DNA of 64,000 nt from an uncultured Opitutaceae bacterium. GTDB taxonomy: Bacteria > Verrucomicrobiota > Verrucomicrobiia > Opitutales > Opitutaceae. This document shows, piece by piece, positions 32,699 to 41,562 of this stretch. The notes under the pieces are model-generated. The model was not told the DNA's origin, made no database searches, and worked only from the letters and a program-made list of their open reading frames with translations. Position numbers and translations under genes: made by a program. The number at the start of each line of letters is the position of its first letter. Position 1 is the stretch's first letter. Where the stretch lies: positions 3,543,627 through 3,607,626 of the forward strand of contig OX638348.1 of the NCBI GenBank assembly GCA_951813085.1, read 5' to 3'.

Positions 32699-33487
32699 AT
32701 GATGGGCTCGAAAACAAATTTACTTTCTGAGCTGATTCAGCAATCGAATGCTTTGTATTTCAGAAATTATTTATATAAATTTCAAGGAATGAAAATGAAG
32801 TATATGTGGCATATTGTTATGCCTTGTTTACCAATATTTTTGTATAATTTGTTAAATGCTATAGGTATATTCGGAGAGGGTAGTGATGGAGTTCCTCGAT
32901 CAATAACTATATCAATAGGAATAATATATTACTATATCTTTTCTGAAACGATAGTAGGATTTTCTGCTGCCTTAGAAAGTAATAAGAGCTATATAGTTAA
33001 AACAGGTGTGGCATTTAGAGCATGCTACCTCAGTGTTTTATATGCTGTACTAAGTAATTTTGTTATAAGATACTTAGTTTTTCTTATTATATATTTCTTT
33101 TATGATTACCGATTTTCCCCAAATTTAATCTATGCAATATTTTATTTTTTAGTTCCAGTTCTTGTAGGTGCTTCATTAGGCTTAATACTTTCAGTATTCA
33201 CTGTTTTTTACCGAGATTTTAATAACTTTGTTCAAACGATAGCATTCTATATGCTATTTGGATCTGGGGTTTTCGGTCTAATTGATGGAACAAGTACCCT
33301 TGAGATTTTTGTATCCAACCTTCCAAGCTACATTACAGTTGCAAATGCAAAAGGATTGATCCTACCCGAATTTGAATTCAATGGTTCTAATGTTTTGGTT
33401 TGGACTTCAATATCTTTGTTCCTTTGCTCTTTGTCTATCGTTGGAATTAGGAATTCGAAAGGATTAGTAGTCAATTACTTGAGATGA
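32699..33487 (+). CDS. ABC-2 type polysaccharide export permease (Wzm-like)
   Basis: 262 residues with about six membrane helices. Typical ABC-2 permease layout: a short cytoplasmic N-terminus (LSELIQQSNALYFRNYLYKF), helices, the interfacial YRDFNNFVQTIAFYMLFGSGVF segment that includes the E/D-loop-like coupling region, and a last helix near the C-terminus. It exports a lipid-linked polysaccharide across the inner membrane with the ATPase encoded next (4-base overlap). Translation can start at ATG 32699 or 32702. Base composition drops sharply from the atp operon to this gene. Confidence 0.85.
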   Translation: MMGSKTNLLSELIQQSNALYFRNYLYKFQGMKMKYMWHIVMPCLPIFLYNLLNAIGIFGEGSDGVPRSITISIGIIYYYIFSETIVGFSAALESNKSYIVKTGVAFRACYLSVLYAVLSNFVIRYLVFLIIYFFYDYRFSPNLIYAIFYFLVPVLVGASLGLILSVFTVFYRDFNNFVQTIAFYMLFGSGVFGLIDGTSTLEIFVSNLPSYITVANAKGLILPEFEFNGSNVLVWTSISLFLCSLSIVGIRNSKGLVVNYLR

Positions 33488-34806
33488 ATGACAATCTGTT
33501 GAAAGTTTCTAATCTTTCGAAGAAATTTACTCTAAATAGTAAATATGTAAATTCACCTAGGCTAGGTGATATTATAAAGAGCTTTTTTGGAATAGAGTTT
33601 AACTCAATTCGGAAAACAGAAGATTATTGGGCCCTTAAGAATATATCATTTGAATTGAAAAGGGGCGAAAACTTGGGTATTGTTGGGCTTAATGGAGCAG
33701 GTAAGAGTACTTTATTAAAGATAATTCTTAATCGTTTGTCATGCGACTCAGGTAGTTTCAAATTGGCAGGAGATGCAGGCGGTTTAATCGAATTGGGAGC
33801 AGGTTTTCATCCAGAACAAACGGGTAGAAAAAATATATATTTAAACGCCAGACTCCAAGGAATAAGTAAGAAAGAAGTTAATGAGAAAATTGATGATATA
33901 GTCGGGTTTTCAGAGTTGGAAGAATTTATTGATATGCCAGTAAAAACTTATTCTAGTGGTATGACAATTAGGTTGGGGTTCTCTGTCGCAATTCATTTTG
34001 TAAAAGATTTAATTATTTGTGACGAAATTTTGGCAGTCGGCGATTTCGAATTTAAGCAAAAATGCTACAAAAAAATACATGAATTGAAAGAACGTTGTAG
34101 TTTTATTTTGGTGTCACATAGCACAAGAGACATTGCTCTTTTTTGCGATAAGGCTATGTTTTTACACAAAGGTGAATTAGTACAATACGGTCCAACAGAT
34201 GAAGTATTGAAGACATATGGACTAGTTACGCGAAGTGATTCGGTTTCTGATTTAAAGAAAAAAATGATGAATAGGGAGATAGAAATAGATTTAAACCAGA
34301 AGAGGGGAAAACACATTAACTTAATACAAGCGATTCAATTTCAAGAAAGCGAAGAATCGCGGGTTGAACGTTATGGAAGAATTTATGAGGATTCTGAGTA
34401 TGTTAAGGATGTTATCGTTGAATGTTCAGGAAAGGTGATAGGAGATGAGTTGGTCATTGAAAATTCTAAGGCCTTTTTTCTAAAAATTACATTTACAATT
34501 CTTAAATCCGTCGCACATCTTCGTATAGGACTACCTTTTTTCAATGAAATGGGTGATATGTTGATTGGGCCTGATTCACGAAAACTTACCCTTGGGGATA
34601 GTGCGTTTGCGACTCGTGGGAAAAAGTCGATTGTAGTCTCTGCAAATCGGTACCCAGTCAATGAAGGCAGATTTATGATAGTCTTGGCAATAAACAATGA
34701 TCCTGGGTTTTTATACCGGAGGCACTTGTGTTACGTGACGGTAAAAAATGTTGATGGATCATTTGGACAAGTTGCGAGCAATATTGTTTGGAAAGTTGCG
34801 GTATGA
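33484..34806 (+). CDS. ABC exporter ATPase with C-terminal glycan-binding-like domain (Wzt-like)
   Basis: 440 residues. The ATPase half shows Walker A GLNGAGKS (68-75), signature YSSGM, Walker B LIICDE and the switch H in LVSHSTRDI; GAGFHPEQTGRKNIYLN is typical of polysaccharide exporters. About 150 extra residues (about 290-440) form a beta-rich domain in the position of Wzt-C, with EDSEYVKDVIVECSGK, a KIT/TILKSVAHLRIGLPF strand pair and a GRFMIVLAIN end. In E. coli O8/O9a this domain recognises the modified non-reducing end of finished chains before export. That role here is inferred from architecture and the neighbouring methyltransferase. Confidence 0.87.
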   Translation: MNDNLLKVSNLSKKFTLNSKYVNSPRLGDIIKSFFGIEFNSIRKTEDYWALKNISFELKRGENLGIVGLNGAGKSTLLKIILNRLSCDSGSFKLAGDAGGLIELGAGFHPEQTGRKNIYLNARLQGISKKEVNEKIDDIVGFSELEEFIDMPVKTYSSGMTIRLGFSVAIHFVKDLIICDEILAVGDFEFKQKCYKKIHELKERCSFILVSHSTRDIALFCDKAMFLHKGELVQYGPTDEVLKTYGLVTRSDSVSDLKKKMMNREIEIDLNQKRGKHINLIQAIQFQESEESRVERYGRIYEDSEYVKDVIVECSGKVIGDELVIENSKAFFLKITFTILKSVAHLRIGLPFFNEMGDMLIGPDSRKLTLGDSAFATRGKKSIVVSANRYPVNEGRFMIVLAINNDPGFLYRRHLCYVTVKNVDGSFGQVASNIVWKVAV

Positions 34807-37283
34807 ATTACCAGAATTTAGTAAAGTTGTTAAGAGGAATTGAAGGATCGCAAAGCAAGATCCGCCAACTTGAAGAGGAAATTAAAAAGCGCGATATCAT
34901 GATTGGAAATCGTGATATCGCAGTTAGAGTGTTGCGCGAGGCGTTGAAGAAAACTGAATCCCAACAATCGAAAACATCTGTAGAACTGATTGAAATAAGA
35001 GGATATGTCGCAGAACTAGTGCAAAAACTAGAATTTATAAAAGATGGTAGACTTCTCCAAAAGGTGCTTTCAGTTCTAGGCTACAGTAGAAGAGTAAGTA
35101 AAATTGGTCAGTTGGCACTTCTGGCAAAAAATAGAATCAGTAATCTAGGTACATTCGTGCCTGAAGTGTTAGATTTCTCAGAAAGCAAAAAGTACGTTCC
35201 TAGCGTTAATAATGCCCCGCCCCCTAGTTCAATAGAACTAGAATCTAGCTTAGTAAGTGGATCGCGTGAGTTAAATCTTGATTCTATTCATCCGAGTCAA
35301 TGGAAGCCTGTGGTTTCTGCGTTGTTAGCACGTGGCCATACATCTTTTATGTATTATGCATTTGGCGGTAAACTTCGATTGGTAGATCGTGATACAGCTC
35401 AAATAGAACTTGCTCGTACGAATGCATTCTTAAATCGTATAAGAGCAGAATCTTTGAGAAAATGTGTAGTAATTGGGAACGGGCCCAGCCTAAAAAAACA
35501 CGATTTTTCATATATACGTGATAAATTTTTGATAGGCTCAAACTATATTTTCTTACTGGAGAAAACAATCGGACGGCTACCGGATATTATTTCTATTACA
35601 AATTACCTGGTATTGGAGCAAAGACTTGAAGATGTTTTAAAACTTAATACTAATATAGTAGTCCCTCTCTATATGTACGATAAGATCGGCCGGAGAAGTA
35701 ACGTATACTATCTTAATATACATCACAACTTTGAATTTTCTTCAGAAATCGAACTAAGTGCGTCAACTCGCGCTACAGTAACATTTTTTAATCTCCAGTT
35801 AGCATATTCTTTAGGATTTAAGGAATGCTATCTTATTGGAGTGGACAATTCATACATTCAACCGACAAAACGAGAGGGGAAAGTAATAGTACAAGAGAGC
35901 GATGATGGCAATCATTTCGACCCCAACTACTTTAAGGGTTTAAAGTGGCAAAGTGCGGATACAGACATGATGGCGGAAGTTTATCGCCTTGTGAAGAAAG
36001 CATTTATTAGAAGTGGAAGGCAGATTTTCAATGCAGGAATTGGAGGAGCACTAGAGGTATTTGAGCGGGTTGACTATTCCAATGCCCTCTTATCAGGATC
36101 GACAGAAAAATCTCAAGTGGAGCGAACGAAATCCGCTCGAGACATTGTTATAAGCATAAATCCCGATCTTTGTGATGGCACAGGCCACCATCTTCATTTT
36201 GATCAGCGTCTTGCTATGGTATTGGTTCGGAAGGGATGCCAAATAGTCTCGCTCACGAGTAGGCAAATCGATGTTGATGTGAACGATCTGTACCCCTATG
36301 CAGTCCCAACATACAGTAGGTTGACTCATGAAATTGCAATGCGGGATTTCGATCAAAATTTAATCGATGAGTTCGTATCCGAGACGTTGATTGGCCTCAA
36401 GCGTACTCTTGAAACCTTATCTAAAGATGTTCGTGTGACAGTTTTTATGTACTGTAGTTCATTTTCTCATCTTTATGCCTTTAACAGAATTGCACCTGAA
36501 TTCCGCTTTATTAAGTTCAAGCTTCACCTTTTTTATCCATCGTTTGAATCTTCATTCGACAGAGACTCAACTGAATTTGGCAGAGAAGTATTGATTGAAA
36601 CCAATTCAATACCAAACATCGAGTTATTAGGTGGCAGTCATTCCTTTATCGCGTATTTTAATAATGAATTTGCGAGACGTTTGAGTTATCTGCCTTGGGC
36701 ATCAACTACATATTTAGAATCGCCGAAGCCAAAAAAGAATTCCGAAAATAGAATAGCGTTTCTAGGAAATATGAGACCGGAAAAGGGTGGTGATTTAACG
36801 ATCGAAACACTATTAAGATTATGTGCAGACCCAAGGTTTAAACATTACACTTTTTATTCCCGCCGACCTGATGCTGCGAAAGATGCAAGTGCCTTAAGCT
36901 TTGAAAATTTATTGGGAGAGCGAGTCGTTTGGATAAATTCGGATGTATCTTGTAATGACTTTCAAAATTTTATCGAAGTAGGTTCTATTAATGTGATTAC
37001 GTACAATAAAAAAGCATTCCATATGAGACCATCGGGCGTCTTCTCTGACACCCTTCTTGCAAAAAGACCATGCATCGTAGCAGAAGGGACTGAAATGGGC
37101 AAAATTGTTAAAGAGTTAGGGAATGGCCTGACTTTTGAATGTTCGAATGCGGAGGACCTTGTGGAAAAAATCTGGGAGTTAATTTCGGATTTTGATGCAT
37201 TCAGCGAAAAAGCAGAGATGGAGGCAAATGAATGGTGCGAAGAGAATTCGTGGCAAAAGTTACTAGAATTGCTGTTATATTAA
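34803..37283 (+). CDS. Coiled-coil / GNGPSL-domain / GT-B glycosyltransferase fusion
   Basis: 826 residues from ATG 34803, which overlaps the upstream stop (ATGA). Residues about 5-85 form a coiled coil with I-x-x-R-D-I-x-I-G-N-R-D units. Residues about 205-420 form a domain with VVIGNGPSLKKHDF (225-230 core), LIGVDNSYI, D-G-N-H-F-D-P-N-Y-F and FNAGIGGALEVFERVDY, the same set as in the 275-residue protein at 51040; it resembles DUF115/MptE-like and sialyltransferase-like Rossmann folds. From about 430 a GT-B glycosyltransferase follows, with RIAFLGNMRPEKGGDLTIE and a C-terminal domain. It probably adds sugars or caps in the exported glycan. Confidence 0.75.
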   Translation: MNYQNLVKLLRGIEGSQSKIRQLEEEIKKRDIMIGNRDIAVRVLREALKKTESQQSKTSVELIEIRGYVAELVQKLEFIKDGRLLQKVLSVLGYSRRVSKIGQLALLAKNRISNLGTFVPEVLDFSESKKYVPSVNNAPPPSSIELESSLVSGSRELNLDSIHPSQWKPVVSALLARGHTSFMYYAFGGKLRLVDRDTAQIELARTNAFLNRIRAESLRKCVVIGNGPSLKKHDFSYIRDKFLIGSNYIFLLEKTIGRLPDIISITNYLVLEQRLEDVLKLNTNIVVPLYMYDKIGRRSNVYYLNIHHNFEFSSEIELSASTRATVTFFNLQLAYSLGFKECYLIGVDNSYIQPTKREGKVIVQESDDGNHFDPNYFKGLKWQSADTDMMAEVYRLVKKAFIRSGRQIFNAGIGGALEVFERVDYSNALLSGSTEKSQVERTKSARDIVISINPDLCDGTGHHLHFDQRLAMVLVRKGCQIVSLTSRQIDVDVNDLYPYAVPTYSRLTHEIAMRDFDQNLIDEFVSETLIGLKRTLETLSKDVRVTVFMYCSSFSHLYAFNRIAPEFRFIKFKLHLFYPSFESSFDRDSTEFGREVLIETNSIPNIELLGGSHSFIAYFNNEFARRLSYLPWASTTYLESPKPKKNSENRIAFLGNMRPEKGGDLTIETLLRLCADPRFKHYTFYSRRPDAAKDASALSFENLLGERVVWINSDVSCNDFQNFIEVGSINVITYNKKAFHMRPSGVFSDTLLAKRPCIVAEGTEMGKIVKELGNGLTFECSNAEDLVEKIWELISDFDAFSEKAEMEANEWCEENSWQKLLELLLY

Positions 37284-37284
37284 G

Positions 37285-38697
37285 ATGAGTGTTTGGCAAA
37301 AGCTATGCGACGCGTTTGACGTAAGTTATTCGGGTGAAGATGAACGAAATATTGCACATGAGTTAGAACATATATATGCGAATTGGCCTGAGGGTAGAAT
37401 ACCGGGTTCAATGGATGACCATATGTTGCTCTATCTTATGCGAAAAAAAGCCTGTCTCCAATCTGGGGTAAACGATTCAGTACATGTTGAAATCGGGAGT
37501 CTTTTTGGTGCTTCTGCTGTAATTTCTTCGTTAGCCTTTTCGAGTTCAGGTGCTGGAAATCAAATACTAATTGATCCATTGAGTGGATACTATGGTGAAG
37601 AAACAGATCCATTCAGTGGATCTCGTGTTTCAGAAAAGGTTTTGCGATCGAATCTGGCTGCTTTTAAAGTTGAACAATACAGACTTGTAGCATCCTATTC
37701 AGATAGTGCTGAGGCACTAGCTGCGGTGAATTCTAATAAAATTGCGAGCTTATTTATCGATGGTGATCATTCGTTTGTTGGTGTTGCTAAGGACTGGGAG
37801 AACTATTGTCACAAATTGGCTATTGAGGGTTATGTTTTATTGGATAATTACAACGATCCTAATTGGCCTGAAGTCACAATTTTTGTAAAGTATTTAGAAT
37901 CTAAAATAAATGAATGGGAAAAAATTTGTGCAATTGGTAACGGCGTAGTATTTAAGAGAATCGGAGTGGTAAGTAGCCCGCTATTGTTTGAAATTGGTGA
38001 AATTGATGAAATTTTAAGTGTTAAAGAGAAACAGTTAAACTCAAGTGCCAAGTTGGCATCTACCCGTTTAGAAGGAATTGATAGCAGAGAGGCTCAAATT
38101 GCTAAGCTAAAAGTCCAGATCAAGAATCGAGGTAGTATTATAGATAGATTAAAGTCTCAGATTGACCAATTTAAAAGCCGAATGTGGACTAGAGACGAAG
38201 TAATTACTCAATTTAAATCTAATAGAGAAAAGGATAAATCTAAAATCTCGAACCGTGACGCCGCGATCGCCTCGCTGAAGGGGCGCAGGGCACAGCAGGA
38301 GCGGATGATCTCGAACCGTGACGCCGCGATCGCCTCGCTGAAGGGGCGCAGGGCACAGCAGGAGCGGATGATCTCGAACCGTGACGCCGCGATCGCCTCG
38401 CTGAAGGGGCGCAGGGCACAGCAGGAGCGGATGATCTCGAACCGTGACGCCGCGATCGCCTCGCTGAAGGGGCGCAGGGCACAGCAGGAGCGGATGATCT
38501 CGAACCGTGACGCCGCGATCGCCTCGCTGAAGGGGAATAAAGTGAAATTGGAAATAAAATTACAGAATCGAGATCATTTTATATATATTGCAAAACAAGA
38601 AAGGGTTAAATATGAGACTAAAATAGCTAATCGTGATAAACTCATCAAAAATTTAAAACAAGAATTAGAAAAACGTAAAAGAAAAAGTCGAGATTAA
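37285..38697 (+). CDS. SAM methyltransferase with long C-terminal coiled coil containing identical 21-residue repeats
   Basis: 470 residues; ATG two bases after the previous stop. Residues about 60-230 are a class I methyltransferase of the Methyltransf_24/CmcI type: VHVEIGSLFGASAVIS (SAM loop), ILIDPLSGYYGE, SLFIDGDHSFVGVAKDWENY, YVLLDNYNDPNWPEV. Residues about 250-470 are a charged coiled coil built of 21-residue units starting I-x-N-R-D-x-x-I-x-x-L-K; the middle 4.6 units are identical at DNA level (38245-38535). The layout methyltransferase plus coiled coil next to Wzm/Wzt resembles the WbdD chain terminator of E. coli O9a, where the coil length sets polysaccharide length. Function here is inference; the methylated sugar is unknown. 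Confidence 0.8.
   Translation: MSVWQKLCDAFDVSYSGEDERNIAHELEHIYANWPEGRIPGSMDDHMLLYLMRKKACLQSGVNDSVHVEIGSLFGASAVISSLAFSSSGAGNQILIDPLSGYYGEETDPFSGSRVSEKVLRSNLAAFKVEQYRLVASYSDSAEALAAVNSNKIASLFIDGDHSFVGVAKDWENYCHKLAIEGYVLLDNYNDPNWPEVTIFVKYLESKINEWEKICAIGNGVVFKRIGVVSSPLLFEIGEIDEILSVKEKQLNSSAKLASTRLEGIDSREAQIAKLKVQIKNRGSIIDRLKSQIDQFKSRMWTRDEVITQFKSNREKDKSKISNRDAAIASLKGRRAQQERMISNRDAAIASLKGRRAQQERMISNRDAAIASLKGRRAQQERMISNRDAAIASLKGRRAQQERMISNRDAAIASLKGNKVKLEIKLQNRDHFIYIAKQERVKYETKIANRDKLIKNLKQELEKRKRKSRD
38245..38535 (+). repeat. Tandem 63-bp repeat, 4.6 identical copies, in the methyltransferase coiled coil
   Basis: Units start at 38245, 38308, 38371, 38434 and 38497; the last is 39 bases. Copies read as identical. 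Each encodes the 21 residues I-S-N-R-D-A-A-I-A-S-L-K-G-R-R-A-Q-Q-E-R-M, exactly three heptads, so copy-number change keeps both frame and coil register. By my count 43 of 63 bases are G/C, against an AT-rich gene on both sides. This points to recent expansion of a unit of different origin. Confidence 0.97.
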
Positions 38698-38746: not shown

Positions 38747-39460
38747 ATGTTTGATATAATTACAAAAAAGGATCTATTTCAAGTACTTGATCGCAAACGA
38801 ATTAGTGACGCCAATCCATCATTAAAGAACATTCAAGATGGCTTTGCGGTAGATTGGTTGATAGGTGAAATAGGTACTAGTGGCGGCAAGAATTTAATAG
38901 AAATGGGAGGAGGAAATTCGAGAGTTGCTCGTAGAGTTGCTGCCTGGGACAATAAAATTACTAATGTAGATAAATTTGAAGGAGTTGGAGCTGGACCTAT
39001 TGAAAAACCAGATGAAGTTCCATATGAGATCATAAACTCTTATATCGGCGATTTTTCGGAAGCCTTACTAGACTCTTCATATGATATAATTTATTCCATT
39101 TCGGTTGTAGAACACGTACCGTTAAACCGTATAGGTTGTATGATGCGAGACTGTGCGAGACTCTTAAGGAAAGGGGGTAAATTATTGCATCTAATTGATA
39201 CTTATATGTTTGATTGTCCTGACTTTGCGGGGGCAGATTACTATTCGACTAGGATAAAAGAATATCTAAAACCCATAGAGGGTCTAGAGTTTATCGTACC
39301 ACCAGCACTAAATCCTTGCAGTAAATTTAGTTGCGAGTATGCTACTAATTCACCGTTTGAAATGTGGCGTTGGAAGATAAAGACAAAGGGTGAAAGAATT
39401 AATCACTGGAGAGAAATTGGCCAAGGCTGTTCCATTAAAGCTGTATGGGCAAAAATTTAA
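38747..39460 (+). CDS. Class I SAM-dependent methyltransferase
   Basis: 237 residues. KNLIEMGGGNSRVARRVAAWD is the SAM-binding motif I, TNVDKFEGVG the acidic-loop strand, YDIIYSISVVEHVPLNRIG motif IV, and MMRDCARLLRKGGKLLHLID the post-motif helix typical of small-molecule and sugar methyltransferases. AT-rich like its neighbours. It probably methylates a sugar or lipid intermediate of the exported glycan. Confidence 0.8.
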   Translation: MFDIITKKDLFQVLDRKRISDANPSLKNIQDGFAVDWLIGEIGTSGGKNLIEMGGGNSRVARRVAAWDNKITNVDKFEGVGAGPIEKPDEVPYEIINSYIGDFSEALLDSSYDIIYSISVVEHVPLNRIGCMMRDCARLLRKGGKLLHLIDTYMFDCPDFAGADYYSTRIKEYLKPIEGLEFIVPPALNPCSKFSCEYATNSPFEMWRWKIKTKGERINHWREIGQGCSIKAVWAKI

Positions 39461-39576: not shown

Positions 39577-41562
39577 ATGAGCTGCGCCAATTGCAAATAT
39601 TTATATTATATAATATTTATTATAAGTATTGGTATATCATTATATGAATATACATGGAATGAGAATACAAAGGAAGAACTAGTAATAAGTATTCAATTTG
39701 AAAGCTCTGAACCAGAAGAAAAGTTAAGAGAAAAAATAGTTTTTCACCACTTAGGAGAAAGATTTAGCAATCAAAGTCTAATAAATATTAAGGCGGGTAG
39801 TTGGAAAGTAACATACAAGAACAAGGAGAGTACAGACTACGGAGGTGTGTTAACTATAGATAATCAACAGTTAAAAAATGAAATACTGATTAGAGTAGCA
39901 GGCCCTGGTATTATATTGAAAGGGATATCAGAAACTAGTAAATGCAGTTTGAGCATTAAAGCACGAGGCGAGGAGCAAGAGTATAGTCTTGGATTAAACG
40001 AAACTTTTGAATATAAGCTAAACCGAGAAAATGCATACCATTGGATATTTACGAAAACGCTCATTTATGTATTTCTGTTAAATGTCCCGGTGTTTATCGC
40101 GTATTTATTTGCGAATGATCGCGGAGAATTTAATTTACTCCGAATAGAATATTTTGTACTATTGCTAATTGTAGCTAATGGGATTTGGCTTGTCTGTGAG
40201 CCAGGATTTTATAGTGGCGATGCGGATCAAATATTGAAACAGGTCAATGGGGGGGATGATGTAATTGCGCCTGCTTATTCAGCATTCTATCGTCTGTTTT
40301 CTGAGATCCTCGGTGCTAAGCCTTACTGGATTATACTGTTGCAAGTTTATTCATTTACTCTTTTCCCATATTTTATTGTAGAAAAGATACTTTCGATATC
40401 AAATGAAGCAAAATCAAAAACGAATTCTACTATAGCATTGATCGTTGCATCTGTCCTTCTTTTGAATCCTATATATGTTGGAAGTATGACATTGCTATAC
40501 GTAGATTATCTATTTATAGCGACTTTTCTTGCCTATATTTATATATATATAATTATCCTGAACGATCGTTTCAGAATAGCAAATTCGTTAGCTCTAATAG
40601 TACTAGTGCTTTTTATTCCGTTTTGTAGAACTAATGGATTTGTATTGTTTCCAATTCTTTCATTTTTCACAGCTTTTCTGGTAGTACATAAAGTTTTTAA
40701 AACAAACCAAGTTTGGTACAAAAATCTACGATTCCATCTTATTGTAGCTTTCATTTTTGCTGGATACTTTACCACGAGCTTTTTAGTATCCAAATATTAT
40801 ATCGTCAAAAGAGACAATTACTATATCACCGTTCCCATATATGAGATGGTGGGAGTCTATAGTTTAGATAGAGAGAGGGGTAAATTAGAGTATAAGTGGC
40901 TAGAAAAATATATGAATATTGATCGTGTAATATCTAGGTACAATAGAAGTAATTGTCTTATTCCCACTTTATGGACATCAATCCGATTTGGAGATTTTAA
41001 TTACACAAAAGTTAAGACAGATCACAAATTAATCAGAAATATGTATTTTGAATCAGTTTACAAAAACTTTTGGAGTCATTTACATATAAAAATAAGACAC
41101 TATCTATACACATTGGGGGTTGGTGGATATAATAATTCTCCATATTTTTATGACAATTTACCTCAATCTAGTCTTAAAACAACCATAGTTGAAGAATTAG
41201 AATCTAGGGGTTTATATAAAAATCGCGATATGATAAAGGCGTTGGATGATATTGGCAGAATTTCTAGACATCTTGAAAGTGGACCATTGAGATTTGTATT
41301 TGTTTCAGCATTAGTTCCGATATTATTCATGTTTTTTTATGTAGTATTAATATTAGTTAAATGTATAAAAACAAGAAGACTAGAGAATCAATCAATCGTC
41401 ATGTTGTTGATTGCTTTATTTTCCTTGTTTTATTCATCGAGTTACTTACTTGCTAGTCATGGAGGATTTTCTAAATATCAGTTTCCAACATACGTATTAG
41501 GAGTCATTTCAATTTTTGTGTATATATCTTTCTGGATTGATCGAAAGATTGTAAAGAATTAG
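39577..41562 (+). CDS. Large polytopic membrane protein, GT-C glycosyltransferase-like
   Basis: 661 residues. One N-terminal membrane helix is followed by a beta-rich domain of about 120 residues (ISIQFESSEPEEKLREKIVF onward) and then about ten hydrophobic helices. EPGFYSGDADQILKQVNG lies in the first large loop after a helix, where GT-C enzymes carry their catalytic acidic residues, and the layout (many helices, aromatic-rich loops, C-terminal helices with KYQFPTYVLGV) fits lipid-linked-sugar glycosyltransferases. The exact family is not certain; a polymerase or ligase is an alternative. Confidence 0.65.
   Translation: MSCANCKYLYYIIFIISIGISLYEYTWNENTKEELVISIQFESSEPEEKLREKIVFHHLGERFSNQSLINIKAGSWKVTYKNKESTDYGGVLTIDNQQLKNEILIRVAGPGIILKGISETSKCSLSIKARGEEQEYSLGLNETFEYKLNRENAYHWIFTKTLIYVFLLNVPVFIAYLFANDRGEFNLLRIEYFVLLLIVANGIWLVCEPGFYSGDADQILKQVNGGDDVIAPAYSAFYRLFSEILGAKPYWIILLQVYSFTLFPYFIVEKILSISNEAKSKTNSTIALIVASVLLLNPIYVGSMTLLYVDYLFIATFLAYIYIYIIILNDRFRIANSLALIVLVLFIPFCRTNGFVLFPILSFFTAFLVVHKVFKTNQVWYKNLRFHLIVAFIFAGYFTTSFLVSKYYIVKRDNYYITVPIYEMVGVYSLDRERGKLEYKWLEKYMNIDRVISRYNRSNCLIPTLWTSIRFGDFNYTKVKTDHKLIRNMYFESVYKNFWSHLHIKIRHYLYTLGVGGYNNSPYFYDNLPQSSLKTTIVEELESRGLYKNRDMIKALDDIGRISRHLESGPLRFVFVSALVPILFMFFYVVLILVKCIKTRRLENQSIVMLLIALFSLFYSSSYLLASHGGFSKYQFPTYVLGVISIFVYISFWIDRKIVKN

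What the first reader, a model, noticed from the sequence alone, without database searches (positions are those of the whole stretch)
37285..38697. Methyltransferase with a tandem-repeat coiled coil next to a Wzt-C exporter: possible tunable glycan-length ruler
Seen: a methyltransferase domain is fused to a long coiled coil in which 4.6 copies of a 63-bp unit are identical; 21 residues are exactly three heptads. Known: in the E. coli O9a system WbdD, a capping methyltransferase/kinase, has a coiled coil whose length sets O-antigen length, and Wzt-C recognises the cap. Inference: here repeat slippage could change chain length in a heritable, reversible way while keeping frame and coil register. 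Wzm, Wzt with a C-terminal domain, this gene and a second coiled-coil glycosyltransferase are consecutive. I know of no described bacterial ruler with a DNA-level tandem-repeat switch.
Basis: partly seen in the sequence, partly recalled or inferred. Interest (0 to 1): 0.85.

Follow-up and report, generated by a model that had tools for sequence, protein, structure and literature searches.

The report
Repeat-built glycan-length ruler candidate
A bacterial enzyme that probably caps an exported sugar chain sits on a long rod partly built from identical DNA repeats, and related bacteria have such rods in other lengths, so repeat copy number might set how long the sugar chains grow; that last step is untested.

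Summary
The repeat is real: 63 bp x 4.6 copies, 100% identical, in frame, 38245-38535, found at one place in this 4.85-Mb genome. The gene encodes a sugar-methyltransferase-like domain plus a predicted 233-residue helix, in a Wzm-Wzt exporter island of an Opitutales (Verrucomicrobiota) bacterium; the Wzt C-domain resembles cap-binding Wzt domains by fold. That architecture is known from coiled-coil chain terminators (WbdD; Klebsiella O4/O7/O12). What is new is the DNA repeat, and it recurs: in 60 Wzt_C neighbourhoods 7 of 31 coil genes carry near-identical in-frame arrays, against 0 of 680 non-coil genes there and 0 of 34 coil genes in control stretches. Six of ten array periods are whole heptads. 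Two congeneric orthologues differ, over the compared stretch, by one 528-nt indel lying mostly in the array. E. coli WbdD is 2127 nt in all 48 full-length rows listed. Coil-length change by repeats is thus supported between species; change within a population and any effect on glycan length are untested. The array is oddly GC-rich (GC3 0.91 against 0.13-0.28). YscP is a known repeat-variable ruler, not of glycans.

The parts
32699..33487 (+). Wzm-type ABC permease (262 aa)
   Evidence: ABC2_membrane PF01061 at E 0.0043, under its cut-off; position before Wzt
33484..34806 (+). Wzt-type ATPase (440 aa) with C-terminal cap-binding-like domain
   Evidence: ABC_tran E 1.2e-16; best solved relatives by sequence are O-antigen ABC ATPases 6amx, 8dku, 7k2t; model of C-domain matches Wzt C-domains 5hno (E 3.3e-6) and 2r5o
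34788..37283 (+). 831-aa protein: N-terminal coil with NRD motif, MptE-like, GT1-like; candidate polymerase partner
   Evidence: Pfam scores under cut-offs
37285..38697 (+). MT-coil gene (470 aa), candidate chain terminator with rod
37285..37992 (+). folded methyltransferase part (residues 1-236; Pfam Methyltransf_24 match 68-189)
   Evidence: E 9.4e-10; Foldseek best hit MeT1 6g80, E 1.1e-12
37993..38691 (+). predicted continuous helix, residues 237-469, 21-residue period
   Evidence: AlphaFold model, pLDDT about 55-75 there; self-identity at lag 21
38245..38535 (+). 63-bp x 4.6 identical tandem array; GC 0.68, GC3 0.91
38747..39460 (+). second methyltransferase (Methyltransf_11)
   Evidence: E 2.3e-7
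39577..41562 (+). 661-aa protein, membrane-protein-like by eye
   Evidence: no Pfam or NCBIfam family

Best explanation
The gene encodes a chain-terminating sugar O-methyltransferase at the end of a coiled-coil rod, working with the neighbouring coil-glycosyltransferase and the Wzm-Wzt exporter. The methyl cap would stop chain growth and be recognised by the Wzt C-domain; the rod would set a minimum chain length by the distance between polymerase and terminator. In this and other Verrucomicrobiota the rod's length changes by gain and loss of in-frame tandem repeats, here in steps of 63 bp = 21 residues = 3 heptads. At 0.1485 nm per residue (recalled) one step is about 3.1 nm and the array about 14 of about 35 nm. 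Shown: repeats, domains, synteny, fold of the Wzt C-domain, recurrence of arrays, length differences between species. Inferred: cap chemistry, ruler action, recombination or slippage as the cause. Not shown: variation within a species.
For: Array in frame and in the 21-residue register of its flanks. MT part like sugar O-methyltransferases MeT1 and SpnH by fold. Wzt C-domain like 5hno/2r5o. Wzm-Wzt plus a coil protein near the atp genes in all 5 genus relatives examined of 10. Arrays in 7 of 31 coil ORFs within about 10 kb of Wzt_C, 0 of 680 non-coil ORFs there, 0 of 34 control coil ORFs. G091/G134 differ by one 528-nt indel, 517 nt of it within the 563-nt array. Coil spans 273, 374, 619 aa in orthologues of one genus. 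Published coil terminators (PMC11231755, PMC5082667, passages).
Against: No within-species data. No kinase and no sequence kinship to WbdD. 24 of 31 survey coil ORFs and 4 of the 6 island-bearing genus members seen (G001, G006, G007, G009) show no array in the assembled sequence. Four of ten array periods are not whole heptads, so register is not always kept. The textbook ruler WbdD is constant in length, so rulers need no repeats. Weighted by coil residues the enrichment is only p = 0.02, and two thirds of the control come from one genome. MT relatives from other phyla (23 loci) and viral contigs (16) show no coil array.
Confidence: 0.55

Rival explanations
1. The coil is an oligomerisation or docking device, perhaps for the NRD coil of the 831-aa neighbour, and its repeats are neutral: coils tolerate in-frame duplications, so arrays come and go without setting chain length.
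For: The neighbour's N-terminal coil also holds NRD (by eye). Four of ten periods are not whole heptads. Most coil ORFs near Wzt_C lack arrays (24 of 31).
Against: 0 of 34 control coil ORFs carry arrays, so tolerance alone does not explain the enrichment, though control coils are shorter (4332 against 5848 coil residues in all). Coil length is known to set chain length in related systems (PMC5082667).
Confidence: 0.3
2. The methyltransferase is not a terminator but decorates internal sugars, and the coil only tethers it to the synthase complex.
For: Methyltransf_24 is a broad family; the best solved relatives act on sugars but not, as far as the listing shows, as chain terminators. A second methyltransferase lies next door (38747).
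Against: The exporter has a cap-binding-like C-domain, and such a domain in A. aeolicus binds a methylated end (PMC9445017, passages).
Confidence: 0.12
3. The copy number or the array is an assembly artefact.
For: Repeats are hard to assemble; in G006 and G615 a contig ends inside a coil.
Against: The window genome is one contig, the array is in frame with in-phase degenerate flanks, and arrays recur in other assemblies.
Confidence: 0.03

Closest known systems
WbdD of E. coli O9/O9a (MT-kinase chain terminator with coiled-coil ruler)
   Same: Beside Wzm-Wzt with cap-binding Wzt C-domain; methyltransferase at the N-terminus, coil after it; separate polymerase gene next door (PMC3482155 passages)
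   Different: No kinase found; methyltransferases do not align; E. coli HS wbdD has no long array (only 15 bp x 2.2) and constant length 2127 nt in 48 of 48 full-length rows listed, 60 of 263 records listed
Klebsiella O7/O12/O4 terminators and the E. coli O101 MT with C-terminal coil
   Same: Terminator or MT with coil in an ABC-exporter cluster; fusions MT-coil-GT resemble L193 and L197
   Different: The passages read mention no tandem repeats ('tandem repeat' 0 occurrences in PMC11231755); genes themselves not compared here
YscP needle-length ruler (Yersinia)
   Same: Ruler whose repeat number varies among strains, with a linear relation of protein size to needle length (PMC3469391 passages)
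   Different: Measures a secretion needle, not a glycan; no homology tested

Membership tests
Coiled-coil chain terminators of ABC-exported glycans | gene in a Wzm-Wzt cluster | tested here: met
Coiled-coil chain terminators of ABC-exported glycans | extended coiled coil attached to a terminating-type enzyme | tested here: met
   MT plus 233-residue predicted helix; monomer model only, oligomer not tested
Coiled-coil chain terminators of ABC-exported glycans | Wzt with cap-binding C-domain | tested here: met
   by fold; under the Pfam cut-off
Coiled-coil chain terminators of ABC-exported glycans | enzyme caps the non-reducing end and coil length sets chain length | not testable with these tools
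   needs biochemistry
WbdD (O9a type) | kinase domain after the MT | tested here: not met
   no kinase family in Pfam or NCBIfam; the coil follows the MT directly
WbdD (O9a type) | sequence kinship of the methyltransferase | tested here: not met
   BLASTP best E 0.90 and in the coil
WbdD (O9a type) | membrane-binding C-terminal region that recruits the polymerase | not tested
   the window protein ends in a basic stretch (by eye)
Tandem-repeat contingency locus | perfect in-frame tandem repeat | tested here: met
Tandem-repeat contingency locus | copy number differs between isolates of one species and switches back and forth | not testable with these tools
   one genome per species held; only between-species differences seen

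The most novel reading that the evidence does not exclude
Verrucomicrobiota use tandem-repeat-encoded coiled coils as adjustable glycan rulers: the copy number of coil units, often whole heptads, in exporter-linked chain terminators changes by recombination often enough to tune surface-glycan length heritably, reversibly and in frame. It would be a contingency system for length rather than on/off.
Probability: 0.3. Interest if true: 0.85.

Novelty: new variant of a known kind. Interest (0 to 1): 0.66.

Why it matters
Coil rulers are established for a few enterobacterial O antigens (PMC11231755, PMC5082667, passages). Here the rod itself is partly made of near-identical units, in steps that keep reading frame and in six of ten arrays the heptad count. 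Natural length series exist among orthologues of one genus (273, 374 and 619 residues; or with and without a 176-residue insert). That makes the relation of coil length to glycan length testable with natural alleles, and spanning long reads would show directly whether unit number varies within a culture.

Tried and rejected
Donor of the GC-rich unit: no match in phages, plasmids or, for an exact 26-base pattern, viral contigs; among 372 order genomes only three weak hits outside G000 (L016-L018), none in a coil gene by eye. L037 62-bp repeat: period not a multiple of 3 and no coil there. L059/L060 coil matches: long coil proteins without a methyltransferase. The 23 genome-contig loci of MT relatives and 16 viral-contig loci: only L024 (21 bp x 2.0, 85%) and L037 have a repeat inside the MT frame. 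G006: its two contig ends share GGTAACCAAA and, listed side by side, keep the 21-residue phase, so the contigs may simply adjoin; a hidden array is possible but not shown, and a search of G006 found only the one place. Plasmids held no relative of the MT part.

Counting rules: with period >=15 and no identity limit 12 of 45 coil ORFs had repeats; the stricter rule (period >=40, identity >=85%) gives 9 of 45, and 7 of 31 in the survey alone. Dropped by it: coil ORFs L153 (42 bp, 78%), L171 and L195 (21 bp, about 80%); non-coil ORFs L163, L180, L203 (two) and L204. The Fisher line printed used numbers I had typed before seeing the counts; one search replaces it. The threshold and the heptad test were chosen. 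The coil detector is my own heuristic. The 60 survey places come from 60 of 158 genomes with Wzt_C, chosen by kinship and Wzt_C score, some on short contigs; not a random draw. The 60 control stretches are 40 from G000 and 20 from nine other genomes, picked away from the Wzt_C places listed but not checked for others. GC-biased conversion as cause of the array's GC: array richer than gene in the window, L145, L150 and L174, poorer in L158 and L189, about equal in L086, L193 and L197; left open. More genus members: of 6 genomes of G091's genus only G091 and G134, and of 19 of G618's genus only G618, G615 and G540, matched the query used.

Full report
OBSERVATION. The window holds one tandem array, 38245-38535: 63 bp, 4.6 copies, 100% identical. 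It is in frame in ORF 37285-38697 and encodes ISNRDAAIASLKGRRAQQERM. Its copies lie at this one place in the single-contig genome G000. Chance is excluded by codon shuffles (0 of 200) and by 800 kb of the same genome without an array of period 30 or more.

THE GENE. The folded part (residues 1-236) holds a Methyltransf_24 match at 68-189 (E 9.4e-10). By fold it is closest to MeT1 (6g80, E 1.1e-12), with the rhamnosyl O-methyltransferase SpnH (4cdz, E 1.5e-7) among further hits; that MeT1 works on a mycobacterial methylated polysaccharide is recalled. Residues 237-469 are predicted as one helix, pLDDT about 55-75, in a monomer model from five sequences. The coil has a 21-residue period also outside the array: self-identity at lag 21 is 0.24 before it and 0.42 after it, against 0 to 0.05 at lags 20 and 22. 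So the array is a homogenised stretch within an older degenerate repeat, and adding or removing a unit keeps frame and heptad phase. The G006 orthologue (36% identical in the MT) keeps an NRD-type motif every 21 residues on two contig ends.

SURROUNDINGS. Wzm, Wzt, a coil + MptE-like + GT1-like protein, the MT-coil gene, a second methyltransferase and a 661-aa protein follow each other. The Wzt C-domain is under its Pfam cut-off, but its model (pLDDT 77.6) has the Wzt C-domains 5hno and 2r5o as best Foldseek hits. In A. aeolicus such a domain binds a methylated non-reducing end (PMC9445017, passages). The exporter lies near the atp genes in all five genus relatives examined (G001, G006, G007, G009, G010), each with a coil protein: with the MT in G001, G006 and G007 (in G001 a few genes lie between), with a sulfotransferase-like domain in G010 (Pfam) and G009 (by eye). 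G002-G005 and G008 were not examined for it. The bacterium is placed in Opitutales because contigs of genus-mates G001 and G007 have the lengths of NZNM01000132.1 and JAJFLS010000760.1.

RECURRENCE. In 60 Wzt_C neighbourhoods (1.01 Mb; 60 of the 158 genomes with Wzt_C among 367 searched) 7 of 31 coil ORFs carry an array of period >=40 and identity >=85%; 0 of 680 non-coil ORFs do. In 1.2 Mb of control stretches (40 from G000, 20 from nine other genomes) 0 of 34 coil ORFs and 0 of 840 others do. Fisher p = 0.004 against control coils and 1.5e-10 against neighbouring non-coil ORFs; weighted by coil residues p = 0.02. With the window and G091 there are 10 arrays in 9 ORFs, periods 42, 63, 84, 96, 105, 168, 171, 186, 231 and 297: all multiples of 3, six of ten multiples of 21 (p = 0.001, a test chosen after seeing the data). 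The 7 survey ORFs carry Methyltransf_24 (L174), Methyltransf_11 alone (L189, cut by a contig end inside its array) or with GT2 and GT1 (L193, L197), Methyltransf_23 after the coil (L150), a sulfotransferase with GT2 and GT1 (L145) or GT2 alone (L158). They lie within about 10 kb of Wzt_C; that each is a terminator is not shown.

LENGTH CHANGE. G091 and G134, two species of one genus, have orthologous coil-MT proteins. Their genes align at 81-82% with a single indel of 528 nt (176 residues), of which 517 nt lie in the 563-nt array of G091 (186 bp x 3.0); no other gap over the compared stretch. G134 is cut by its contig end within the MT. In another genus orthologous MT-coil-GT proteins have coil spans of 273, 374 and 619 residues. 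By contrast E. coli WbdD spans exactly 2127 nt in all 48 full-length rows of the 60 listed (263 records matched, 203 not listed), down to 89.9% identity; the HS gene holds only a 15-bp x 2.2 repeat.

MECHANISM. Published coil terminators keep the capping enzyme away from the polymerase, so that only chains long enough are capped and exported (PMC11231755, PMC5082667, passages). The anatomy here fits that model with a methyl cap. The new element is a rod extended by DNA repeats. Whether that happens within populations, and whether glycan length follows, cannot be decided from one genome per species.

COMPOSITION. The array has GC3 0.91; the gene has 0.28 before and 0.13 after it. G010's first array is also GC-richer than its gene (GC3 0.61 against 0.28-0.40), its second is not (0.36). 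The G006 coil turns GC-rich at the contig break. Other arrays depart either way. No donor was found. Introgression or GC-biased conversion during repeat recombination are both possible; neither is shown.

PRIOR ART. YscP shows that a repeat-variable bacterial ruler is not new as such (PMC3469391, passages). For glycan rulers, six searches of the open-licence library listed no title or abstract on tandem-repeat coil length; one search listed 15 of 22 and 12 of 50 papers found. The main ruler paper (Hagelueken 2015) is not held.

VERDICT. Observation confirmed. The WbdD-like ruler reading fits by architecture, not by sequence family. Repeat-linked change of coil length is supported between species and enriched in coil genes near Wzt_C. 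The reversible switch remains a hypothesis.

Noticed in passing
38245-38535: Array GC 0.68 and GC3 0.91 inside a gene with GC3 0.13-0.28; no donor found.
   Followed up: partly
L061 end and L062 end (G006): A congener's assembly breaks inside the same coil; the ends share GGTAACCAAA and the sequence turns GC-rich there.
   Followed up: partly
L145:12068-16906 (G010): At the same island position a congener has sulfotransferase-coil-GT2-GT1 with two arrays (171 bp x 4.1, 297 bp x 2.5).
   Followed up: partly
32.6-41.6 kb: AT-rich exporter island right behind the atp genes, GC about 0.29-0.42 in most 500-base steps; same site used in congeners with other gene content.
   Followed up: partly
42.0-43.0 kb: GC-rich block (about 0.65-0.67) with transposase-like frames, looks like an IS3-type element by eye.
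   Followed up: no
34788-37283: MptE-like domain (GNGPSL motif) with GT1-like domain and an NRD coil; in G007 an MptE-like/coil/MT protein of 1462 aa is one gene.
   Followed up: partly
L195:10459-14586 (G540): Coil shows a second, more distant repeat of about 50 residues by eye, not caught by the array rule.
   Followed up: no
L037:1723-1960: 62-bp x 3.8 repeat upstream of an MT relative in a Planctomycetota contig, out of frame with any coil.
   Followed up: partly
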